From: a virus
Length of the DNA: 20,259 bases
IMG/VR virus record: IMGVR_UViG_3300005613_000504
Span: 1-20,259 of that record
Reading direction: 5' to 3' (one strand)
Shown here piece by piece: positions 1,031-20,085 of this stretch. The stretch's first letter is position 1. Each line of letters begins with the position of its first letter. The notes beneath the pieces are model-generated. The model ran no database searches and had not been told where the DNA came from. It saw only the letters and a list, made by a program, of their open reading frames with translations. A program made the position numbers and the translations under genes.

Positions 1031-2263
1031 TTAAGAAATATAACCATAAATTATTGTAAAGACATCATCTGTTGCCACTTTTGTTCTTGCCGTCCAAGTT
1101 GAAGCATCTGGTGAAGTCCATATATCACCATTTCTATTTATTAAAACAAATAATCCAATATCGGGAACATATTCAACTACCAAGTAATAACTTACACCAC
1201 TTATTGGTGTTGTTGTTGCCGACCAATTTATACCATCAGTTGATGTCATCGCATTATTTGATGTATATGATACTGCCAACATTAAACCATCACTTGGTCT
1301 ATGAGTAATACTATTTGTACTCCATACATTATTTGTTCCACCACTTAATGGATTACCCGTTCCACTCCAATTTATACCATCATAAGAATATCCTGCTGTG
1401 GCACAATCACCTTGAATTGCCACAGTTAAACCTAATGTGTCGTTGTGATATGGTATAACTCTGCTGCTAAATAATATATTATCTCTTAATGTAAATGTTC
1501 CACCAGAATATGTGGTATAAATCTCACCATCTTCTCTACCTGCGATAATTTGATTATTTGTTGTATCCTCTGTTATTAAGAATAAATCCGAAGAACCTGC
1601 TATTGGGTAATTAAAACCAGTCCAATTTATACCATCATCACTATAATATGCTCCCGAACTTTCATTTGGTGCCGTAATAAATCTATTCAAATAACTAATC
1701 CATTTAAGGTCATTTATTCTATCGGCAGTAGATGGACCAGTTGTAGTCCAAGAAGAACCAGAATAAGAATATGATAATTTTTGACCCGTAAATCTTCTAC
1801 CATCACTCGATACAAACATACCTAATGTATCACTATATGCAATATTAGAGCTATTTGTTAAACTATAAGTCACACCAGACCAATTTATTCCATCATAAGA
1901 TTTACCACCTCTACTATTACCACCTGTTCCATACAACACCAATAATTGTTGTGGTGGTGCTGGTGTCGCAGATGGGGTAGGTGTTGGAGTTAAAGTAGCC
2001 GATGGTGTTGGAGTTGGACTTGTCGTAATTGACGGAGTTGGGGTTACCGTAGTAGTTGGCGTAGGAGTAACCGTTGAACTCGGCGTAGGAGTTGGTGAAA
2101 TACCACCAGATGGAGTTGGTGTTGGGGTTACTGGCGTTGGAGATGGACCAGTGGTTTTAACACCACCTCGCCAAGGGTAATAAACCAATAAATTACGACC
2201 TGAATTATTATAGGCTAAATCCCCATAGGGTTTTGGTTTAAAATCATCATCAATATAAGGCAT
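1031..2263 (-). CDS. Probable seven-bladed beta-propeller tail tip / receptor-binding protein with Pro-Thr stalk
   Basis: 410 residues in three parts. Residues 1-38 are a short N-terminal module ([20 protein letters not shown]), perhaps for attachment to the virion. Residues 39-104 are almost only Pro, Thr and Ser (PTPTPTPS-type repeats), an extended stalk. Residues 105-410 contain seven Asp-box-like motifs (SxDGxxW type) starting near 122, 165, 207, 249, 292, 340 and 383, about 43 residues apart: [28 protein letters not shown], a degenerate [39 protein letters not shown]. Even spacing of seven such motifs is what a BNR/Asp-box propeller shows. No sialidase active-site set is evident, so binding rather than hydrolysis is likely. 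A receptor-binding role is inferred from the stalk and gene position. Confidence 0.7.
1952..2149 (-). repeat. Pro-Thr-rich coding repeat (stalk of propeller protein)
   Basis: About 200 bases of imperfect short repeats encoding PTPTP(S/T) units, seen on the plus strand as alternating GTTGG, GTGTTGG and GTAGGAG words. The same codon pattern recurs at 9997-10031, 13022-13069 and 13265-13330 in two other tail genes. Such tracts can slip during replication and can serve as recombination points between genes. Confidence 0.8.
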
Positions 2264-9641: not shown

Positions 9642-12302
9642 TTAGTAAGTGGTTATGGTTGCATATATATTACCTGATGCGGGGAAATAGTTGTATGCTT
9701 GAACTAAATAACCCACACCTGATGATGGTTGAGCAATGTCTGTTTGACCCAGTGAGCAATCACCAGGTGATGTTCCAAGACATAATCTAAGATTATTAAA
9801 TGAACCACCCACAACATTAACCCATGTAATAGTGAATGTGTATATATTAAAACCTGATGGTACTTGAACCGTTCCTGAACCTACTGAGGTTTGATATAAG
9901 TATTGTGTTGTACCTTGATATACCGTTAATGATAATGAGTTGATATTCGTATCATATGGTGATGCTAAGTTATTGTTTATATACCAAGACAGAGTATTTG
10001 TCGGTGTTGGTGTTGGTGTAGGTCTTGGAGTGTTCTGTGATACATAATCAGGTGCCACGGGGTCTGATATTTCTTGTGTCTTATATGGTTCTTTTAAAAA
10101 CTCACATTCAACCAATGACTTATCGGTTATATCCCCATCATTTATTGAATATAATCTCCATCTTGAATTTAAGAAATAAACAGAATCATTAAAATCAATC
10201 TTTGATACATCCTCAGGGGTTAATATGAAATTCCCCTTGAATATTCTTGCTTCATCTGAATATAAAAGGTCAAGGTAGGGTTTATACCAGTATCGGTATA
10301 GATTGTTTGGTGTATAACCCTTAAAATCGGTATTATCCATAAAGAAGTCATAGGTGGGGTCAAAGTTTAAATCAGAGAAAGGAACATCATCTTCTTCTGT
10401 TAATTGAGATAAATGACTTATAACAGGATATGTGTCGTGTCCCACCGATGTTGTACCAGATAAGATAAAATATTCGGCATTATCATTATTTGTTGTACCA
10501 GTATAGAAATATTGTTTTCCACAATAGAATCCCAACCTTAATCCTAAGGACATCGGTGTTTGTCGTGGGTCTGTATTTGGTTCTCCCAATCTATATAACT
10601 CAGGGATAATCATTGTTGAACCTGATGCTATTGAATCTGTTGGTAGGGGTTCAAACTTGAATTTAAGTTGTTGTGTCCCCGATAATAGGTCTGATTGTTT
10701 TTCAAAGAATTTCTCACCAAATATCTCGTTAAACTGATTGATGAAATAATCATTCAATATATCATCTGCTTCTGAATAAGTTAAATGTAATATTCTTTGC
10801 AAGTCAAAATCTAATGGGGTGATTTCATATGGGGAATTGTAATCCAACTTATCACTCCAATCATAAGTTGTACCACTGGCTGAACTTAAATAATTCGTCC
10901 ATGGCTCAATTAAAAATGAGTTCTCACCATTTGGTATTACCACAAGGTTAAAAACCCCAATAACATCCTTAAAAAAGTCCAAGGCACTAATATTACAAGG
11001 TAGGTTGTCCTCCCAATATACATCACCAAGATTTGGAACAACATTTGGTGAATTATATAACTCCCAAAATGCTCCATCTGTACCAGTTCTAAATCCTAAT
11101 TTATTGTAAGGGTCACCACCTGTTGTTTGTCTTCTAAACATAACTGCCACCCTTTGTCCTTTGGTAAGGGATGCGTTTAAAAAGAATATCTTTCTTGTGG
11201 CTGAACCAACGGGTATTGGAACTCCCGATTGGATTGATTCAATACTACCTGTGTCAATATCTCTAATGGCAACATCAATATATGTGGGAGCATATGCTGT
11301 TCCTGCAATAAAGATTTCTTGCTCAATATGAAATTGATAATTTCCTGTAATCGGTACGGTGAACCAGTTATTACCCGTACCTGGTCCTGTTGCGGGGTAT
11401 CCACTCTCGTTAAATTGGTCTAAATAATCATATTCAATGGTGTTATACACAAAGTAATTCCATGCATCCACTGGATTTGGTGCATCATAAAAATAATTTG
11501 TTCCCTCATATGTTGCCAAAAATACATTTTGATTTTCAGGTCGGTCTCCAATAACCGCTGTACCCATACCTGAATTATTTCCTGCTAATACAAATATGGA
11601 TTGAAAATAGTCGGTATTGAAAAATTGACTATCATATCTAAACCCTGCTTCTTCAAAGATTAAATCAATCATATATCTTAGATTTAACCACGGCTTAAAT
11701 TGGTCTATGGTGATTGGTTCGCTTTGGTTGGTAAAGTTTGTACCACCCACTCCAAATGTACCATAAGATAAATCAGGGTCATAACCTGTATTTGCAATGG
11801 GGTATAATACATTTCCTGTTATACCAGAATAGTTTGAATATGTCCCACCAGTAAATTCCCATGTGGTGACAATATTGTCATAAGTTAATTCATGTTGCAC
11901 ATCTTCATAATTCAACTGACAAATATTAAAGTTTTGTAATACTGACGAAAAGGGTGCTACCTCTTGAACTATATAAACCTCATATTGTGTCCCCTGTGGT
12001 TCAACAATAATCTTATTCAATCTCATCTTTCCTCTAAACACATCATTACCTCCCGATTGAATTACACAGTTGGTTTGAAGTTTGTTATTGAAGTCAGTTG
12101 CATTTACATTAAATGCTGAACGGAAGAACCTCTCATTATTGTCCGTTGAGGGGATTAGAAAGGTTTTGGTGAATGATGTCTTCCTTTGGGTAATATCCTC
12201 CACCTCTTCAATAGATTTATTCACAGAGATTGTTAAATCACTTGGAACATCAAGATTTCTCCATTGTCCCGCATCAATATCATATGCCAATAATTGAACC
12301 AT
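9642..12302 (-). CDS. Large tail / baseplate-type structural protein with C-terminal Ig-like domain
   Basis: 886 residues. The N-terminus (LTISVNKSIEEVEDITQRKT, SFTKTFLIPSTDNNERFF, then an FNVNATDFN strand and 'FRGKMRLNKIIVEP') is a pattern I know from a tail structural protein found upstream of the tape measure in phages of Bacteroidota; its biochemical role is not established. The long middle is rich in Tyr, Asn and Gly, as in beta-structured virion proteins. Residues 758-769 form a PRPTPTPTPT linker. The last 117 residues (770-886) make a beta-sandwich-like domain with two Cys (LRLCLGTSPGDCS) and alternating strands, likely surface exposed. It is translationally coupled to the upstream tail gene (TAATG) and ends 11 bases before the tape measure start. 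Confidence 0.6.
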   Translation of the reverse strand: MVQLLAYDIDAGQWRNLDVPSDLTISVNKSIEEVEDITQRKTSFTKTFLIPSTDNNERFFRSAFNVNATDFNNKLQTNCVIQSGGNDVFRGKMRLNKIIVEPQGTQYEVYIVQEVAPFSSVLQNFNICQLNYEDVQHELTYDNIVTTWEFTGGTYSNYSGITGNVLYPIANTGYDPDLSYGTFGVGGTNFTNQSEPITIDQFKPWLNLRYMIDLIFEEAGFRYDSQFFNTDYFQSIFVLAGNNSGMGTAVIGDRPENQNVFLATYEGTNYFYDAPNPVDAWNYFVYNTIEYDYLDQFNESGYPATGPGTGNNWFTVPITGNYQFHIEQEIFIAGTAYAPTYIDVAIRDIDTGSIESIQSGVPIPVGSATRKIFFLNASLTKGQRVAVMFRRQTTGGDPYNKLGFRTGTDGAFWELYNSPNVVPNLGDVYWEDNLPCNISALDFFKDVIGVFNLVVIPNGENSFLIEPWTNYLSSASGTTYDWSDKLDYNSPYEITPLDFDLQRILHLTYSEADDILNDYFINQFNEIFGEKFFEKQSDLLSGTQQLKFKFEPLPTDSIASGSTMIIPELYRLGEPNTDPRQTPMSLGLRLGFYCGKQYFYTGTTNNDNAEYFILSGTTSVGHDTYPVISHLSQLTEEDDVPFSDLNFDPTYDFFMDNTDFKGYTPNNLYRYWYKPYLDLLYSDEARIFKGNFILTPEDVSKIDFNDSVYFLNSRWRLYSINDGDITDKSLVECEFLKEPYKTQEISDPVAPDYVSQNTPRPTPTPTPTNTLSWYINNNLASPYDTNINSLSLTVYQGTTQYLYQTSVGSGTVQVPSGFNIYTFTITWVNVVGGSFNNLRLCLGTSPGDCSLGQTDIAQPSSGVGYLVQAYNYFPASGNIYATITTY
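9997..10031 (-). repeat. Pro-Thr-rich coding repeat, linker of the 886-residue tail protein
   Basis: Encodes residues 758-769 (TPRPTPTPTPTN), joining the main body to a C-terminal beta-sandwich-like domain. Confidence 0.75.
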
Positions 12303-14239
12303 TAGTTATGTTGTCTTAATTCTTTATATCCTCCGTTATATTTAAGGATTAACTCAATTTGTCCTGGTCTCTTTGGATTTGGTATTACCACCTCAGTATT
12401 GGTTGGAATGATTGGTTCAATATCACCATCAGGGTAAATAATATACACTCTTGGTGACCTTGATAATTCTTCACTTAACCAAATTGCATCTGCTTTTGAA
12501 ATATAACCACTTCTTAATATACCTGATTTTGATTGAGGGTTATTCCATACCTTATTGGTGTAGTTCCAACCGTAGTAAGTGTTTTCGTGCCATCCATCAA
12601 CATAAAGTTCAGGTGCTTCTGTATAAGTTTGTCTATTGACATTATAACCCAAGTCCTCAGCCCCTTTGAATGTGAAATAATCATATGTTCCCAACTTATT
12701 CTCAAACATCAATCTAATATTGGTTGTGCTACATTCCTCAGGGAAATAATAATAGAACCATTCTGATATTTGTTCTGCATCAAGACAATCCCCTTCACTT
12801 GGTATTTCACCACCACAAGGACATACCGCAAATGCTGATGCATAATCTGCGTAGAATGTGGTTATATTTGATGAAATAAATCCACCACCACCTAAGGTTA
12901 CAATTTCATATACCTCATTATTATAACAGAAGAATTGACCGATGGTTGCTCCTGTTGTGTTGTTAAAGTGAGCATATGTTGTATCATCACATCTGTTTAA
13001 TGCAATGAAATTACTACCCACAGCTGGTGGGGTTGATGATGGTGTTGGTGTAGGAGTTGGAGTAGGTGCATCACATTCACATCTTCCAACTATCACAAAC
13101 ACCACATCTATAAAATTAGAATATGGAAAAGTACAACTTTCAATCTGTGCATAACTTGTTGATGGTATAGAAATGACTGTCGTTGAACCACCAGGACAAG
13201 GTTCATAAAATACATCAACCGAAAACTCATATGGGTTATAAATGTCATAAACAGTACAATCACAAAAAGGAACTGTTGGTGATGGTGTAGGGGTTGGTTG
13301 AGGTGTTGATGATGGAGTTGGTAATGGTGGTTCTGTTGCCTTCTCCAAACATACTCTATAATACTTTGTTGAACTTGGATATAATATTCCATGCTCATCT
13401 AAGTTGGCTGGTCCCGTTCCAACATATGAAATATATTTCTTTTGGTAATCAACAAAGACTGGTAGAATTGATGTACCACCAGAACAATTTAATCTCCAAC
13501 CACAATTATCTATGGTGTTGTAAGTCCTTGCTGAACTAACCAAATTATCATTAACATCATAAAATTCAAATCTTGCTGAAAATATTGCTTCTGATACTTG
13601 ACCTAACCCTCCCTCTGATATTAACTGGTCGTCAATTAAGGTGGGATTTAATCCCGCCAGTGTTGCATATTCTCCATCTTGAATATATTGTACTCTTGGT
13701 GAATTGGTTAAGTATCTGTGAGTATCCCACGGCTCAGGGGTTGTTGGTAATGAGGTATTAAGATAAAATACACTTGAATTGAAATACTTTCCATCAAACC
13801 ATTCCTTAACACCATTGAATATGTATTTCTCATCTCTACCCCAACTTACAGCAGGGTCTCCAACATTTCCATTACCATCATAAATTAAAGTATCCCCATT
13901 TTCTGTTGTTGCATATTCTTCACCCACATATACTCTAAAATTGGTAATGTCTTCATTTAACCAACCCCATTTACAAGTGTTAATCGGGGTATTACCCGTA
14001 CAACCCATATTGATTGGATTTGAGTTGGTGTAGTTTCTAATTATTTCACTTATATCACATTGACCCCAACTGTTGTTCTGTGGGGTTATTTTTAATCTTG
14101 ATATAAAAGCATTGTCGGCATAAATATCAACAACATATCTGTATTTGTAATATGCGGTCTGTGCAGTACTGCTGAACTGTATAACACTATTCCCATATGC
14201 GGGTTGGTATTTTCTTGGGGTTGATAATAATGTAATCAT
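12302..14239 (-). CDS. Large tail protein with two Cys-rich domains on Pro-Thr linkers inserted in the middle
   Basis: 645 residues in four parts. Residues 1-303 are a beta-rich N-terminal region (MITLLSTPRKYQPAYGN..., YKYRYVVDIYADN). Residues 304-325 are a Pro-Thr linker. Residues 326-389 form a small domain with several Cys (CDC, EPCPGG, ESC, GRCEC). Residues 390-406 are a second PTPTPTPTP linker, followed by another small Cys-containing domain (about 409-480; ALNRCDD, QFFCYNN, CPCGG). Residues 500-645 resume a tail-protein fold (NIRLMFENKLGTYDYFTF, LSEELSRSPRVYII, IELILKYNGGY) that I recognise from structural proteins next to the tape measure in Bacteroidota phages. The inserted domains probably protrude from the virion. 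The exact tail role is unknown. The stop overlaps the next ATG by one base. Confidence 0.6.
   Translation of the reverse strand: MITLLSTPRKYQPAYGNSVIQFSSTAQTAYYKYRYVVDIYADNAFISRLKITPQNNSWGQCDISEIIRNYTNSNPINMGCTGNTPINTCKWGWLNEDITNFRVYVGEEYATTENGDTLIYDGNGNVGDPAVSWGRDEKYIFNGVKEWFDGKYFNSSVFYLNTSLPTTPEPWDTHRYLTNSPRVQYIQDGEYATLAGLNPTLIDDQLISEGGLGQVSEAIFSARFEFYDVNDNLVSSARTYNTIDNCGWRLNCSGGTSILPVFVDYQKKYISYVGTGPANLDEHGILYPSSTKYYRVCLEKATEPPLPTPSSTPQPTPTPSPTVPFCDCTVYDIYNPYEFSVDVFYEPCPGGSTTVISIPSTSYAQIESCTFPYSNFIDVVFVIVGRCECDAPTPTPTPTPSSTPPAVGSNFIALNRCDDTTYAHFNNTTGATIGQFFCYNNEVYEIVTLGGGGFISSNITTFYADYASAFAVCPCGGEIPSEGDCLDAEQISEWFYYYFPEECSTTNIRLMFENKLGTYDYFTFKGAEDLGYNVNRQTYTEAPELYVDGWHENTYYGWNYTNKVWNNPQSKSGILRSGYISKADAIWLSEELSRSPRVYIIYPDGDIEPIIPTNTEVVIPNPKRPGQIELILKYNGGYKELRQHN
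13022..13069 (-). repeat. Pro-Thr-rich coding repeat, second linker of the 645-residue tail protein
   Basis: Encodes residues 391-406 ([16 protein letters not shown]), between the two small Cys-rich domains. Confidence 0.75.
13265..13330 (-). repeat. Pro-Thr-rich coding repeat, first linker of the 645-residue tail protein
   Basis: Encodes residues 304-325 (PPLPTPSSTP, QPTPTPSPTVP). The plus strand shows GGTGTAGGGGTTGG-type words like the other tracts. It joins the N-terminal tail domain to the first small Cys-rich domain. Confidence 0.75.
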
Positions 14240-15557: not shown

Positions 15558-16052
15558 AAAAAAAACGCCAGCAAGAACATCCTTCAATAGTATATCACCC
15601 ATTTCCTTACTTCTTTCAACACACTCATCATAATCATATTCAACCAATGTTCTTTCATTTGTCATCTTATCATATTTGGTTGTGGGTCTGTATAATATTG
15701 CTGCGATGTGCTTGAAATTAAGGGGTCTCATTGACAATAAACTTTCCAAATCAACCCATTCACCATATGACATCTTTGAGGGATTTACAAGTCCTAATAT
15801 CTCCTTTCCTGTAAAGATTAAGGGTCTTAACTCCCCCTTCTGTGTTTCATTTGATACATAGGTGTTTAAGACCTTTGCAACGAAGTTTATCTGTTGCATG
15901 GTTGCTTGTCTTATCTTCTGTTGAGGTATTCCCGTAATAAGGGAAATGAACTCATCATTCTCAGGGTTCTTATTGTTCTTTAATGTCTCATACATATCAA
16001 GGGTAATCCCCTTTAATTCATAATCTTTGTTTGCTAGTTGTACCTTCATCAT
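15498..16052 (-). CDS. Tail assembly chaperone, short (zero-frame) product
   Basis: 184 residues. Blocks such as FISLITGIPQQKIRQATMQQ (about 35-54), MSYGEWVDLESLL, FKHIAAILYRP and YDYDECVERSKEM match the pattern of tail assembly chaperones in related phages, which bind the tape measure protein while the tail tube is built. Near the end, at residues 163-166, a run of ten T produces a canonical slippery heptamer in the correct phase, so a fraction of ribosomes should shift to -1 and make a longer form. The zero frame runs only 18 more codons after the slip site before TAG at 15498. The ATGA overlap couples it to terL. A second in-frame ATG follows immediately at 16049. Confidence 0.78.
   Translation of the reverse strand: MMKVQLANKDYELKGITLDMYETLKNNKNPENDEFISLITGIPQQKIRQATMQQINFVAKVLNTYVSNETQKGELRPLIFTGKEILGLVNPSKMSYGEWVDLESLLSMRPLNFKHIAAILYRPTTKYDKMTNERTLVEYDYDECVERSKEMGDILLKDVLAGVFFLTKYNHLLVEDTLTSMENQ
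15555..15561 (-). other. Programmed -1 ribosomal frameshift site (U UUU UUA)
   Basis: On the minus strand the codons GTT TTT TTT TTA ACC are in the zero frame of the tail chaperone. The last seven bases before ACC read T TTT TTA, the classic X XXY YYZ heptamer with the right phase. A -1 slip opens a 93-codon frame that ends at 15274. A short inverted repeat TCTAC-TC-GTAGA lies 18-29 bases downstream and could be a weak stimulator. A homopolymer error in the ten-T run is possible, but the phase and the gene family argue for a real site. Confidence 0.75.
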
Positions 16053-17194
16053 AAAAAGTGATATTGTGGTTTTGGTTTATTAGACATCTCCATCGCATAT
16101 CTAATCGCATCTATTCCGTGATTGTATTTGTCCTCAGGGGTGTCTAATATATTTCCGTCTTTATTTTTCTTCCATTTATAGTTTTTAAACTCATCTAAAA
16201 TATTAGTTGATTTCTTATCTATATAAACCTTATGTCTTTTGATAAGGTCTATACCATGTAATATGGTATTTTTCTTTACTGGCTTTGCATTTATCCCCGA
16301 CCTCTTTAAATCTTCAATAATCTCAGGTCTTGCTGAATCACACCATATTTCATCAGTGGGGTCAATATCCATCTGTTGTATCTTATAAATAATATCATTT
16401 GCAGTTAATCCCCTTTGGTATAATAATTCTTTTACATAGATATTATCATCAATCTTTCTTATTTCAACAAATGCTGTTGGGTCGTTGTATCCCCAGTCAA
16501 GTCCCCTGAATATGTTTTTGGTTTGGGGTATTTCATCTGTTTCATAATATTTGGTAAATACACTATTGGTTGCAATACCCCTCTCACCTAATCCAAAGAC
16601 CCTCCACAGGTTTTCATCTTTATCTTGGAGTGATTCTATTTCCTTAATAATTTCCTTCGTTAGAAAGGGATTTTCCTTGTAGGTTGATTTATGAAAAAAT
16701 ACATCTTCTTCTGTTTCAATCAGGTCGTAGATATAAGAATATAAATCTGAGGGGTTGTAATCCATTATGATTGTATGTGTTGTTCTTATGGCTAATTGCA
16801 CATATTCATCTCTTGTTATTTCATTTGCTTCGTTGATAAATAAAATATTTCTCTTCCTCCCCCTTAACTTCTGTTCTTCATCTGTACTAAACCATTCTAT
16901 AACTGAACCATTATCTAATGTGTAATATCCTTCTTGTTTTTTCCAGTTGGAGGGATTGTATAGTGCCAGCGTTTCTAAAATTTCTTTAAGGTCTTGTAGG
17001 ACTGAACCCTTTAACGCTGGTAGGGTTTTTCTGACGATTGAGAGGGTTATATTTGGTGTTTGGAGTAGATGTATCACCAACCATAAGATAATGTTGTAGG
17101 TCTTACCAGAACGAGCCGAACCCTGAAATAAAAGTAATCTCTTATCTTTGTTTTCTTCTAATTTCTCAAATATCTCTGTGGTTTGTATTTTCAT
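16049..17194 (-). CDS. terL: Terminase large subunit
   Basis: 381 residues, the ATP-driven motor and nuclease that packages phage DNA into proheads. The N-terminal ATPase has Walker A as GSARSGKT (25-32), Walker B as NILFINEANE (116-125) with the catalytic Glu, and a coupling-like MDYNPSD (144-150). The C-terminal RNase H-like nuclease has its acidic residues in GLDWGYNDPTAF (231-242, D233), WCDSARPEII (284-293, D286) and YNHGIDAIRYAM (358-369, D362). Length and motif order are usual for the Terminase_3/6-type large subunit. The start overlaps the previous stop as ATGA, and its own stop overlaps the tail chaperone start in the same way. Confidence 0.95.
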   Translation of the reverse strand: MKIQTTEIFEKLEENKDKRLLLFQGSARSGKTYNIILWLVIHLLQTPNITLSIVRKTLPALKGSVLQDLKEILETLALYNPSNWKKQEGYYTLDNGSVIEWFSTDEEQKLRGRKRNILFINEANEITRDEYVQLAIRTTHTIIMDYNPSDLYSYIYDLIETEEDVFFHKSTYKENPFLTKEIIKEIESLQDKDENLWRVFGLGERGIATNSVFTKYYETDEIPQTKNIFRGLDWGYNDPTAFVEIRKIDDNIYVKELLYQRGLTANDIIYKIQQMDIDPTDEIWCDSARPEIIEDLKRSGINAKPVKKNTILHGIDLIKRHKVYIDKKSTNILDEFKNYKWKKNKDGNILDTPEDKYNHGIDAIRYAMEMSNKPKPQYHFL

Positions 17195-17559
17195 AACTTT
17201 TCCAACATTTTATCAAACCATAAGTCAAGTGAATAGTAGCGACTATTAGTTCCTTTATCCCCATAGTCAATACCATTATCATTTGTTAAACCACCGCCGA
17301 AGTTTCCACCCCTATATTGTTTATGTTTAGCGTTGGGGTTAAAACCACTTTTACTAACACTACCATCATTTAACATATCATCACAGACAAGTAGGTTGGG
17401 GGTAAATCTACCACCAGTATCATTAGTAGTAAAACCATCGTGTTCGTATCCAGCATCACCACCAAAAATAGATGTTGCCTTTTTACCCCCACCAACCTTT
17501 TCATCAACAAAAGGTATTCTACAATCTCCAATCCAACTAACACCTTTGGAATATCTCAT
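17191..17559 (-). CDS. Free-standing target-recognition-like segment of a DNA methyltransferase
   Basis: 122 residues with no catalytic motif of its own. RYSKGVSWIGDCRIPF (2-17), GGRFTPNLLVCDD (49-61), NDGSVSKSG (64-72) and NSRYYSLDLWFDKML (105-119) correspond, in order, to the internal variable region of the N4/N6 methylase family ('GTGGINID.CRI', 'GRFPANLIHDGS', 'GSASRFFY'). That region normally lies inside the protein and helps choose the DNA target. It is precisely what the neighbouring C-terminal fragment lacks. The middle is Gly/Asn-rich. The gene overlaps the upstream fragment by ATGA and its stop overlaps the large terminase start by ATGA, so it is kept in the coupled operon. It may supply specificity in trans to the split enzyme, or be a decaying remnant; the sequence alone cannot decide. 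Confidence 0.72.
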   Translation of the reverse strand: MRYSKGVSWIGDCRIPFVDEKVGGGKKATSIFGGDAGYEHDGFTTNDTGGRFTPNLLVCDDMLNDGSVSKSGFNPNAKHKQYRGGNFGGGLTNDNGIDYGDKGTNSRYYSLDLWFDKMLEKL

Positions 17560-18212
17560 AAGTCCAACTTTGTCTGTGTGTCCTTTATTTCCATCTTAAA
17601 AAACTTGATAAGGTCTTCCCTTGATACACTCAACCTCTCCTCAATAATATCCATATACTCTTTTTCCCTTTCAATACCAATAAAGTTTCTGTTGATAAGT
17701 TTGGAAGCCACACCAGTTGTCCCACTACCCAAGAACGGGTCTAATACCCAATCCCCTTCCCTTGTAAATAAGGTGATGATATAAGACATCAGTTTAACTG
17801 GTTTCGTGGTGGGGTGGGTGTTTTTACCCATTTCTTTTCTTGGGTTTCCATTACCCGTTAGTTTCATACCTTTATCATCTCTCCAAACTCTCGTGCTCTT
17901 TTCCTCACCAGTTAGTCCAAAATCCTTCTCCTTCTTTGCTGGTTTGGGGACTTGAATAAATGGTGTTGTTTCAGTTTCCTTATTTAATCTAAACTCATAA
18001 TCCAAGATATTATCAATATAAGATTTTGAGTTATGAGGCTTCATACCAATAATGATATGTTCTACGGCTGGCTTAAATTGTGCTCCGCTTTTTGACCCTT
18101 CGTATTTCTTTAACCACTCTGGTTTTATGAACTTTCCGTCCTCTATTCTATTTAATTCTATTTCGTGTCCCTTGTAGGTTATTTTTATTACTTCCATTTT
18201 CAATTCCTTCAT
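17556..18212 (-). CDS. DNA methyltransferase, C-terminal fragment (motif X/I half), lacking its central recognition segment
   Basis: 218 residues from the ATG at 18212; an in-frame ATG at 18197 gives 213. It contains KPAVEHIIIGMKP (47-59), SYIDNILDY (64-72), PFIQVPKPAKKEKDFGL (84-100), the family hallmark HPTTKPVKLMSYI (133-145) and motif I DPFLGSGTTG (158-167) with FIGIEREKEY. This is the second half of the same methylase family as 18687-19085, in the same frame, so one ancestral gene was probably split by the HNH gene. In the family, a segment with a 'GI..ID.CRI ... GRFPANL ... SRFF' pattern lies between the 'NIL' and the 'PFI.V.KA' blocks. Here the two are only about ten residues apart, and the missing segment appears as the separate gene at 17191-17559. 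The stop overlaps that gene as ATGA. Confidence 0.83.
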   Translation of the reverse strand: MKELKMEVIKITYKGHEIELNRIEDGKFIKPEWLKKYEGSKSGAQFKPAVEHIIIGMKPHNSKSYIDNILDYEFRLNKETETTPFIQVPKPAKKEKDFGLTGEEKSTRVWRDDKGMKLTGNGNPRKEMGKNTHPTTKPVKLMSYIITLFTREGDWVLDPFLGSGTTGVASKLINRNFIGIEREKEYMDIIEERLSVSREDLIKFFKMEIKDTQTKLDL

Positions 18213-18669
18213 ATTTTTTATGACTACTATTACAAGGAAACAATAGTAGGTTATTTTTATTATTGTTTGTTGGGTCGTGGTCTATGTGATGGACTACCTC
18301 CACTCTATCTAAACATCTACCAACCCATTTAGCCATCACTAATCTATGTTCCATAATATACCCATCTTTCCTTGCCATTTGGATATATTCTTGGGGACAC
18401 CTCACATATTTAACATTTTTGTAATTACCCTTTTTCTTAAACATAGTTATACCACCTTTCCATGCGGGGTTCTGTTCCCCAAACATAACTGGTAATTCAG
18501 TATTACGCATATAGTGTTGTGATAATTCTTTATTACTATGAACCCATTTTAACTGGCAACTATGACTACAAAACTTGTTTTTGTTTCTTCTTAAATCATT
18601 AGGTCTTCTGTAAATGTCTTTTTTACAATAATCACAACTAGTATTAGGTCTTCTATTAGGTTTATTCAT
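18148..18669 (-). CDS. HNH endonuclease (homing-type) inserted in a methyltransferase gene
   Basis: 173 residues from the ATG at 18669; a GTG at 18696 would add nine residues but lies inside the upstream fragment. An N-terminal zinc-binding-like segment has C12, C15, C34 and C38 (CDYC ... CSHSC). The 'NPAWKGG' motif at 67-73 is common in phage HNH proteins. The nuclease core is MEHRLVMAKWVGRCL (106-120), EVVHHIDHDPTNN (124-136) and NLLLFPC (140-146), with H127 and H128 as likely catalytic and metal residues. The last 20 or so residues read in an alternative frame through the start of the next gene, so the natural domain probably ends near KKYEG (151-155). It cuts DNA, and the context suggests a mobile, free-standing homing endonuclease. 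There is no room on either side for a group I intron, and no intein frame. Confidence 0.85.
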   Translation of the reverse strand: MNKPNRRPNTSCDYCKKDIYRRPNDLRRNKNKFCSHSCQLKWVHSNKELSQHYMRNTELPVMFGEQNPAWKGGITMFKKKGNYKNVKYVRCPQEYIQMARKDGYIMEHRLVMAKWVGRCLDRVEVVHHIDHDPTNNNKNNLLLFPCNSSHKKYEGIENGSNKNNLQGTRNRIK

Positions 18670-18686
18670 ATCACAAATATACAACT

Positions 18687-19085
18687 TTATTCCCACTCTA
18701 TATTATCGTATCCAAGTTTTTCTAACTCTTTTTCTAAACCTTTTGTTATTTGTTTAACGGGGTCTGCCGCTTTCGGGAAGCCCGTGTGCGTAGTCCAATA
18801 CAAGGGTGAAAATCTCATATCAAACCCCGCCTCCTCTAATTTCTGTATCATACGATATAATAAATCACTACGGGGACTACTCATCACCGCAATAAATGAA
18901 CCAGGTTTTAATACCCTATAACACTCACGGAATATTTCAGTATCTGGTAATGCTTTATCCCAATCCTTACCCATAAAGTGTAATCCGTATGCGGGGTCAG
19001 TCGCCAGTAAATCTACTGAATTGTCTTTAATCTCTTTCAATCTTTCGGCACTATCACCGAGTAATAAATGTTGTTCTATATTCAT
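18687..19085 (-). CDS. DNA methyltransferase, N-terminal fragment (motif IV half) of a split gene
   Basis: This 132-residue frame starts at the ATG at 19085, one base after the previous stop. A longer frame from 19136 exists but lies inside the upstream gene, so I prefer 19085. It contains LLLGDSAERLKEI, then motif IV as TDPAYG (29-34) followed by FMGKDWD, then a 'YRVLKPGSF' strand and 'HTGFPKAADPVKQI'. These are the first third of a well-known phage and bacterial DNA methylase family (N4/N6) of roughly 400-500 residues. The frame stops right after YDNIEWE, and motif I is absent. The remainder of the family sequence is found at 17556-18212, in the same reading frame (start codons 924 bases apart), beyond an HNH gene. 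It may be half of a functional two-piece enzyme or an inactivated remnant. Confidence 0.82.
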   Translation of the reverse strand: MNIEQHLLLGDSAERLKEIKDNSVDLLATDPAYGLHFMGKDWDKALPDTEIFRECYRVLKPGSFIAVMSSPRSDLLYRMIQKLEEAGFDMRFSPLYWTTHTGFPKAADPVKQITKGLEKELEKLGYDNIEWE

Positions 19086-19086
19086 A

Positions 19087-20085
19087 TTATTTTTGTTTTT
19101 TTTCAAGTTTCCATTTATATCCACCCCTACTTTCAAACTTGGTTCTGTTGTAGGTTCTCATAATATCTCCTGATTCAACACCTGTGGCTCTTGATGCTTC
19201 GTCCCTATTTTTGTAACAGGCAATTAAGTTATCATCCAAATCATACTGACATACCAACCATTGCTCCAACTCCTCACCATTTATTCTTTTGTTTCCAAAC
19301 TCCGCATATTTGGGGTTTAACTCATAACCAATAAATTCTCTATTCATATCCTTACAAGGTAATCCTGTTGTTCCAATACCACTAAAGGGGTCTAAAACTA
19401 AATCACCCTCATCTGTTAAAAACTTAATAAAGTATTCGGGTAATTGTCTGTGATATGGAGCAGGATGTCTAATAGTATTATCTCTTGCTGCCCCCGCTGT
19501 TGGAAATCTAAAGACATTGTCGGGTCTGACTTTATCTTTCACAACCAGGTCTCTTTCAACATCATAATTTCTAAACCCATCTATAATATTACCCTGAGGC
19601 TTAAATAAACCATTTCTCTCAAATCGTTTTTTTGTTTCAATATTAGTGTCCTCTAATACCCTATCCATATACCACTTTAATTCCTTCTGGTTTTTAACAA
19701 AATGAAATATAAATTCTGTAGTGTTTCTAAACCTTTTTTTACTACCATTTGGAATACCATTCATTTTATGCCAGATGTAAGTGTCGTAGAACCTTAACTT
19801 GGTTTCCTTCTGACTACGATATATTAATTCGTAAATGAATGGGTTTCTTAACCCATTTTTACAATTATCGTTAATGTTTAATATAAAACTACCACTTGGT
19901 TTTAAAACCCTCTGTATCTCGTTGAAAAGGGGTAATAACCAATCACAATATTCATTTGGTTTTTTAATTGATATATTTTTACCATAGTTGATTATATCCG
20001 CATACGGAGGACTTGTAATAACCAAATCAACAGAGTTGTCTGGTTGTTCTTTAATTAAGTCAAAACAATCACCCTTTATTATCAT
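19087..20085 (-). CDS. DNA methyltransferase (beta-class, N4-cytosine or N6-adenine) with C-terminal NUMOD1-like domain
   Basis: A 332-residue S-adenosylmethionine-dependent DNA methyltransferase. Catalytic motif IV is TSPPY at residues 24-28. The AdoMet-binding motif I is DPFSGIGTTG at 232-241, followed by FIGYELNPKY. Motif IV at the N-terminus and motif I near the C-terminus is the beta-class order, with the target-recognition region between (about 90-210). SPPY is more typical of N4-cytosine enzymes, but N6-adenine cannot be excluded. Residues 277-326 form an extra domain: QYDLDDNLIACYKN, then DEASRATGV, then GGYKWKL. This matches the pattern of NUMOD1, a helix-turn-helix DNA-binding module usually seen in homing endonucleases. 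The frame overlaps the preceding gene by 17 bases and ends one base before the next ATG. Likely role: modification of phage DNA against host restriction. Confidence 0.88.
   Translation of the reverse strand: MIIKGDCFDLIKEQPDNSVDLVITSPPYADIINYGKNISIKKPNEYCDWLLPLFNEIQRVLKPSGSFILNINDNCKNGLRNPFIYELIYRSQKETKLRFYDTYIWHKMNGIPNGSKKRFRNTTEFIFHFVKNQKELKWYMDRVLEDTNIETKKRFERNGLFKPQGNIIDGFRNYDVERDLVVKDKVRPDNVFRFPTAGAARDNTIRHPAPYHRQLPEYFIKFLTDEGDLVLDPFSGIGTTGLPCKDMNREFIGYELNPKYAEFGNKRINGEELEQWLVCQYDLDDNLIACYKNRDEASRATGVESGDIMRTYNRTKFESRGGYKWKLEKKQK

What the first reader, a model, noticed from the sequence alone, without database searches (positions are those of the whole stretch)
19087..19260. Methyltransferase fused to a NUMOD1-like homing-endonuclease DNA-binding domain
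The last ~55 residues of the first methyltransferase (QYDLDDNLIACYKN ... DEASRATGV ... GGYKWK) fit NUMOD1, which is normally attached to HNH or GIY-YIG homing endonucleases. A methyltransferase with this add-on, next to an HNH gene inside a second methyltransferase, suggests exchange of parts between homing endonucleases and modification genes. The domain may add sequence specificity or protect the HNH target site.
Basis: partly seen in the sequence, partly recalled or inferred. Interest (0 to 1): 0.6.

Follow-up and report, generated by a model that had tools for sequence, protein, structure and literature searches.

The report
Phage DNA methyltransferase with swappable NUMOD1 tail
A phage enzyme that chemically marks DNA carries, at its end, a small DNA-binding block otherwise found on gene-homing nucleases, and related phages have none, one, two or four of these blocks in different combinations, as if swapping recognition parts.

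Summary
The last ~55 residues of the first methyltransferase (MT1, window 20085-19087, minus strand) are one NUMOD1 module. The window's own copy is too diverged to pass Pfam alone (E 0.12, 13 bits). Relatives' tails hit NUMOD1 at up to 2.5e-18. The tail alone finds endonucleases, and no methyltransferase, among 50,697 phage records. Its predicted fold (pLDDT 90) has one convincing match among 350,542 PDB chains, the HNH homing endonuclease I-HmuI (1U3E, TM 0.72).

Among 75 complete relatives, 13 have no unit, 39 one, 20 two and 3 four, of at least four sequence types in different orders. The architecture changes about 38 times on the core tree. One pair is 97-98% identical in DNA before and after the tail and differs by its presence. 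Units are under purifying selection.

The neighbouring HNH gene, which splits a second methyltransferase, has no NUMOD1; its only close relative sits beside a tailless MT1. It is therefore not the visible donor.

Most likely this is an anti-restriction phage methyltransferase whose tail adds DNA contacts beside the target base. Methylation specificity was not tested.

The parts
19087..20085 (-). MT1: beta-class (motif IV TSPPY before motif I DPFSGIGTTG) DNA amino-methyltransferase, 332 aa, m4C predicted
   Evidence: Pfam N6_N4_Mtase 6.4e-47; closest solved structures are m4C MTases 8s9m/8s9n and M.PvuII 1boo; catalytic residues invariant in 46 aligned proteins
19102..19254 (-). C-terminal NUMOD1 module, type A (strand-strand-helix-helix-strand)
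   Evidence: unit HMM 7e-24 in the window; family hits in relatives; fold matches I-HmuI
19255..19281 (-). linker GEELEQWL between core and module, the point where tailless relatives end
   Evidence: C-termini compared
18687..19085 (-). N-terminal part of second methyltransferase MT2 (DPAY motif, m6A-type predicted); ATG just after the MT1 stop
18148..18669 (-). free-standing HNH gene that splits MT2; no NUMOD1
   Evidence: HNH_3 3.2e-06; close homologue only in L061 at the same site
17556..18212 (-). C-terminal part of MT2; contiguous with the N part in intact relatives such as L044
   Evidence: N6_N4_Mtase 4.5e-29

Best explanation
MT1 is an orphan, probably anti-restriction, m4C-type beta-class DNA methyltransferase of a Bacteroidota-type tailed phage. 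It has a C-terminal NUMOD1 module homologous to the DNA-binding modules of HNH and GIY-YIG homing endonucleases (shown by sequence, profile and fold). In this MTase family the module is one unit of a recombining array: 0 to 4 units of several types, gained, lost and reordered at conserved boundaries (shown). The most likely mechanism is that the core recognises and flips its target base with its own TRD, while each NUMOD1 unit lies along the flanking DNA as in I-HmuI. This adds affinity and some sequence preference, and so biases which sites are methylated (inferred). Phages exchange units by recombination, probably under changing host restriction pressure (inferred).
For: NUMOD1 identity. Architecture: 75 complete genes, 13 with no unit, 39 with one, 20 with two, 3 with four. 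Turnover: 38 architecture changes on the core tree, and 11 tail/no-tail changes against 12.2 when labels are shuffled. Clean presence/absence: L063 (none) and L034 (A) are 98.3% identical over 298 nt before and 96.9% over 894 nt after the tail. L054 and L026 differ by 177 nt (59 codons, in frame) with an ATTA at both ends. L046 (C) and L043 (B-C) differ by one unit bounded by 26-nt near-repeats (23/26 identical). Selection: over 1,035 pairs unit A has pS 0.64 and pN 0.14, core 0.67 and 0.16; window versus L001 tail pS 0.75, pN 0.05. Unit types differ strongly in the second helix (GDIMRTYN / NHIEDCI / NNIKNIL / HHILTCY), which is nearly constant within types A-C. Homing endonucleases carry the same kind of arrays, up to five units. 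Review PMC3943268 describes NUMODs as tethered DNA-binding regions contacting long sites. Phage orphan MTases protecting against restriction have precedent in 936-type phages (PMC4190342).
Against: No DNA-binding or methylation data exist. DNA binding by the tail is inferred from I-HmuI at about 15% sequence identity, and Foldseek's E-value was weak (0.99) despite TM 0.72. Tailless close relatives show that the module is not needed for the core to persist. Turnover fits neutral recombination as well as selection for new specificity. m4C rather than m6A rests on the SPPY motif and nearest structures.
Confidence: 0.6

Rival explanations
1. The tail gives only non-specific DNA affinity or processivity; unit type and number drift neutrally.
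For: Units appear and disappear between near-identical cores, so no specific pairing with the core is evident.
Against: Distinct unit types keep distinct second-helix sequences, and non-synonymous change is low at saturated synonymous distance. NUMODs in homing endonucleases contact long target sites (PMC3943268).
Confidence: 0.25
2. The tail is a remnant of a homing endonuclease that invaded the 3' end of the MTase gene and lost its nuclease, and is now a passenger.
For: NUMOD1 elsewhere sits mainly on nucleases. GIY-YIG-type proteins with such C-terminal units occur on contigs of two relatives (L053, L179).
Against: Purifying selection and multi-unit arrays speak against a passenger. No intermediate with a nuclease domain was found. 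As an origin story it is compatible with the main explanation.
Confidence: 0.1
3. The tail directs methylation to homing-endonuclease target sites and so protects the phage from its own or rival homing endonucleases.
For: Module shared with homing endonucleases; HNH or GIY-YIG genes lie nearby in the window, L061 and L053.
Against: The local HNH has no NUMOD1; the relative with the same HNH is tailless. No co-occurring endonuclease was found with the same unit type.
Confidence: 0.05

Closest known systems
NUMOD1 (PF07453) / I-HmuI NUMOD-like (PF22083) modules of HNH and GIY-YIG homing endonucleases (I-HmuI, T4 MobB, Lactococcus phage i0139 HNH)
   Same: Sequence profile, strand-strand-helix-helix-strand fold, C-terminal position, tandem arrays
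   Different: Here fused to a methyltransferase, with no nuclease domain
Beta-class DNA amino-methyltransferases (M.PvuII, rotifer N4CMT, phage orphan MTases of phrog_67)
   Same: Catalytic domain, motif order and catalytic residues; phage location near terminase
   Different: Phage records listed for the whole protein mostly align only to about residue 270, and no MTase was listed by the tail search
TRD shuffling / domain movement (DOMO) in Type I S subunits (PMC3077401)
   Same: Recognition units between repeats, gained, lost and moved by recombination
   Different: Here the units are NUMOD1 add-ons to a complete MTase core; effect on specificity not shown
Odn, chimeric nuclease of phage ICP1 (PMC8263062)
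   Same: Shuffling of a DNA-binding domain within phages to retarget an enzyme
   Different: There the enzyme is a nuclease and the domain resembles replication origin-binding proteins of a satellite

Membership tests
NUMOD1 domain | Profile match above curated cut-off | tested here: inconclusive
   Window unit 13.1 bits against cut-off 22.8; homologous tails pass (66.2, 43.5, 42.7, 35.1, 25.7 bits)
NUMOD1 domain | Homology to the DNA-binding C-terminal region of homing endonucleases | tested here: met
NUMOD1 domain | Binds DNA | not testable with these tools
   Inferred from fold and family only
Beta-class N4C/N6A DNA methyltransferase | N6_N4_Mtase domain, catalytic S/D-PP-Y and FxGxG motifs, motif IV before motif I | tested here: met
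Beta-class N4C/N6A DNA methyltransferase | Methylates DNA at a defined motif; m4C product | not testable with these tools
   SPPY motif and m4C structures as nearest hits only
Homing endonuclease | Nuclease domain (HNH, GIY-YIG, etc.) in the same protein | tested here: not met
   No nuclease domain found in MT1 or the relatives scanned
Restriction-modification system | Cognate restriction endonuclease beside the MTase | tested here: inconclusive
   No restriction enzyme recognised among the Pfam-scanned proteins at window 16052-20085; the contig ends 174 nt upstream of MT1

The most novel reading that the evidence does not exclude
NUMOD1 units form an exchangeable recognition array on phage methyltransferases. 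Number and type of units set which sites are methylated, so that phages change their anti-restriction pattern by swapping ~50-codon cassettes, a single-chain analogue of S-subunit shuffling built from homing-endonuclease parts.
Probability: 0.3. Interest if true: 0.75.

Novelty: new variant of a known kind. Interest (0 to 1): 0.56.

Why it matters
NUMOD1 was found here, outside this family, mainly on nucleases and in a few carriers without a recognised nuclease domain. A methyltransferase family that carries it as a variable array suggests that the module also works outside nucleases. It also gives a natural series (0, A, B, C, D, A-B, B-C, A-C, A-x-A-C on related cores) with which the DNA contribution of single NUMOD1 units can be measured through methylation footprints, which is hard with homing endonucleases.

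Tried and rejected
Direct search of PDB sequences with the tail, single or as a profile, gave no convincing hit; the apparent 3.5e-05 hit to P22 comes from many very weak repeat matches. PHROGs and NCBIfam give nothing for the tail. No Rfam family in the window, so the HNH in MT2 is not in a recognisable intron. Two scans of 84,980 bacterial and archaeal genomes found no relative with this fusion; the one partial hit (L199) covers 26 residues of the core. The tail against plasmids gave one weak NUMOD4 protein. In 296 genomes of the phylum of L199, 12 carry NUMOD1; the seven carriers examined are GIY-YIG, NUMOD4 or treble-clef proteins or NUMOD1 arrays without a recognised catalytic domain, none an MTase. 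A multi-unit alignment was too diverse for a degenerate scan. Counting L040 and L048 (frameshifted tails) and L056 (contig end) as tailless was rejected; numbers are given without them. Literature searches found six open-access papers naming NUMOD1; the two opened for that term do not describe an MTase fusion, the other four were seen by title and abstract only, and IENR1 with 'methyl' found none. The original NUMOD paper was not looked for in the library.

Full report
What is there. The window is a 20.3-kb IMG/VR virus fragment. Its terminase is about 36% identical to those of Parabacteroides and Phocaeicola phages, so a Bacteroidota-type tailed phage is likely. At the right end, on the minus strand, lie MT1 (19087-20085), then MT2, whose ATG follows the MT1 stop almost directly and which is split by an HNH gene, then the terminase and structural genes.

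MT1 core. Residues 19-263 are an N6_N4_Mtase domain (6.4e-47) with TSPPY before DPFSGIGTTG, i.e. class beta. Catalytic residues are invariant in the 46 aligned proteins. The nearest solved structures are m4C enzymes, M.PvuII among them. m4C is therefore likely but not shown.

The tail. Four lines settle it. (1) Homologous tails hit NUMOD1 up to 2.5e-18. (2) An HMM made only from MTase tails retrieves the C-terminal units of a GIY-YIG endonuclease on a related phage contig, T4 MobB and a Lactococcus HNH endonuclease. (3) tblastn of the tail against 50,697 phage genomes returns 95 records; the 40 listed are annotated as endonucleases, NUMOD4 proteins or hypothetical, none as an MTase. A two-unit tail returns T4 MobB and staphylococcal HNH enzymes. 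(4) The predicted tail structure (pLDDT 90.4) has one convincing match in the PDB, I-HmuI (prob 0.95, TM 0.72).

A variable array. 71 relatives of MT1 came from the first viral scan, and more from scans with unit sequences. The unit is about 50 residues, mostly begins (V/I)xQYDLxxN and ends G(Y/F)xWKLE. Of 75 complete, distinct genes, 13 have none, 39 one, 20 two and 3 four. At least four recurrent types (A-D) plus singletons occur, as A, B, C, D, A-B, A-C, A-D, B-C, C-B and A-x-A-C. Apart from the endonucleases named above and fragments cut by frameshifts or contig ends, every protein carrying the units in these viral loci has the MT1 core.

Turnover. On the tree of the cores the architecture changes 38 times, and presence/absence 11 times against 12.2 for shuffled labels, i.e. 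almost no phylogenetic signal (tree, a quick search with many weakly supported forks). L063 and L034 are 98.3% and 96.9% identical before and after the tail, which only L034 has. L054 and L026 differ by an in-frame 177-nt segment with ATTA at both ends. L046 and L043 differ by one unit with 26-nt near-repeats at the two unit starts. In L016 the linker plus unit A is duplicated at 91% DNA identity. Deletion and insertion by recombination at unit boundaries is the simplest reading; direction cannot be told for each pair.

Constraint. Synonymous sites are near saturation while amino acids are conserved: unit A pS 0.64, pN 0.14; core pS 0.67, pN 0.16 over 1,035 pairs; window versus L001 tail pS 0.75, pN 0.05. 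The tail is therefore selected as protein. The second helix differs between types and is nearly fixed within types A-C, as expected if it contacts DNA bases.

Relation to homing endonucleases. In a sample of 296 genomes from the phylum of L199, 12 carry NUMOD1; the seven carriers examined include GIY-YIG proteins with up to five units and NUMOD1 arrays without a recognised catalytic domain, and no MTase. Two phage contigs that carry the MTase also carry a GIY-YIG-type protein with a C-terminal unit (L053; L179 on the contig of L034). The HNH beside MT1 in the window has no NUMOD1, and its one close relative (L061) is beside a tailless MT1, so the tail and the neighbouring HNH look independent.

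Most likely function. Inferred: an anti-restriction methyltransferase whose NUMOD1 units contact flanking DNA, changing affinity and site choice; phages swap units. Precedents for the separate steps are NUMODs as tethered DNA-binding regions (PMC3943268), orphan phage MTases protecting against restriction (PMC4190342), recognition-domain movement in S subunits (PMC3077401) and DNA-binding-domain shuffling in a phage nuclease (PMC8263062). Not shown: DNA binding, base and motif methylated, any effect of the tail.

Limits. All relatives are virus contigs from metagenomes; some tail differences could be assembly artefacts, but the commoner architectures recur in contigs of different samples and reading frames are intact. 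The phage is incomplete, so a cognate restriction enzyme elsewhere cannot be excluded.

Noticed in passing
window 17556-19085 (-): MT2 is split by a free-standing HNH gene; the same HNH (65% identical) splits MT2 in L061, while other relatives such as L044 have MT2 intact. No Rfam intron family detected.
   Followed up: partly
L053:10-657 and L179:1111-1662: Phages of this family carry GIY-YIG type proteins with a C-terminal NUMOD1-like unit, possible donors of MTase tail units.
   Followed up: partly
L040 and L048/L070: MT1 genes with frameshifted tails (unit continues in another frame): decaying tails or sequencing errors.
   Followed up: no
window 1031-2263 and 12302-14239 (-): Structural-region ORFs with TPTPTPS-rich linkers.
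   Followed up: no
L202, L200, L201, L203: Genomes from the phylum of L199 encode proteins with up to five NUMOD1 / I-HmuI-like units, one (L203) with no recognised nuclease domain.
   Followed up: no
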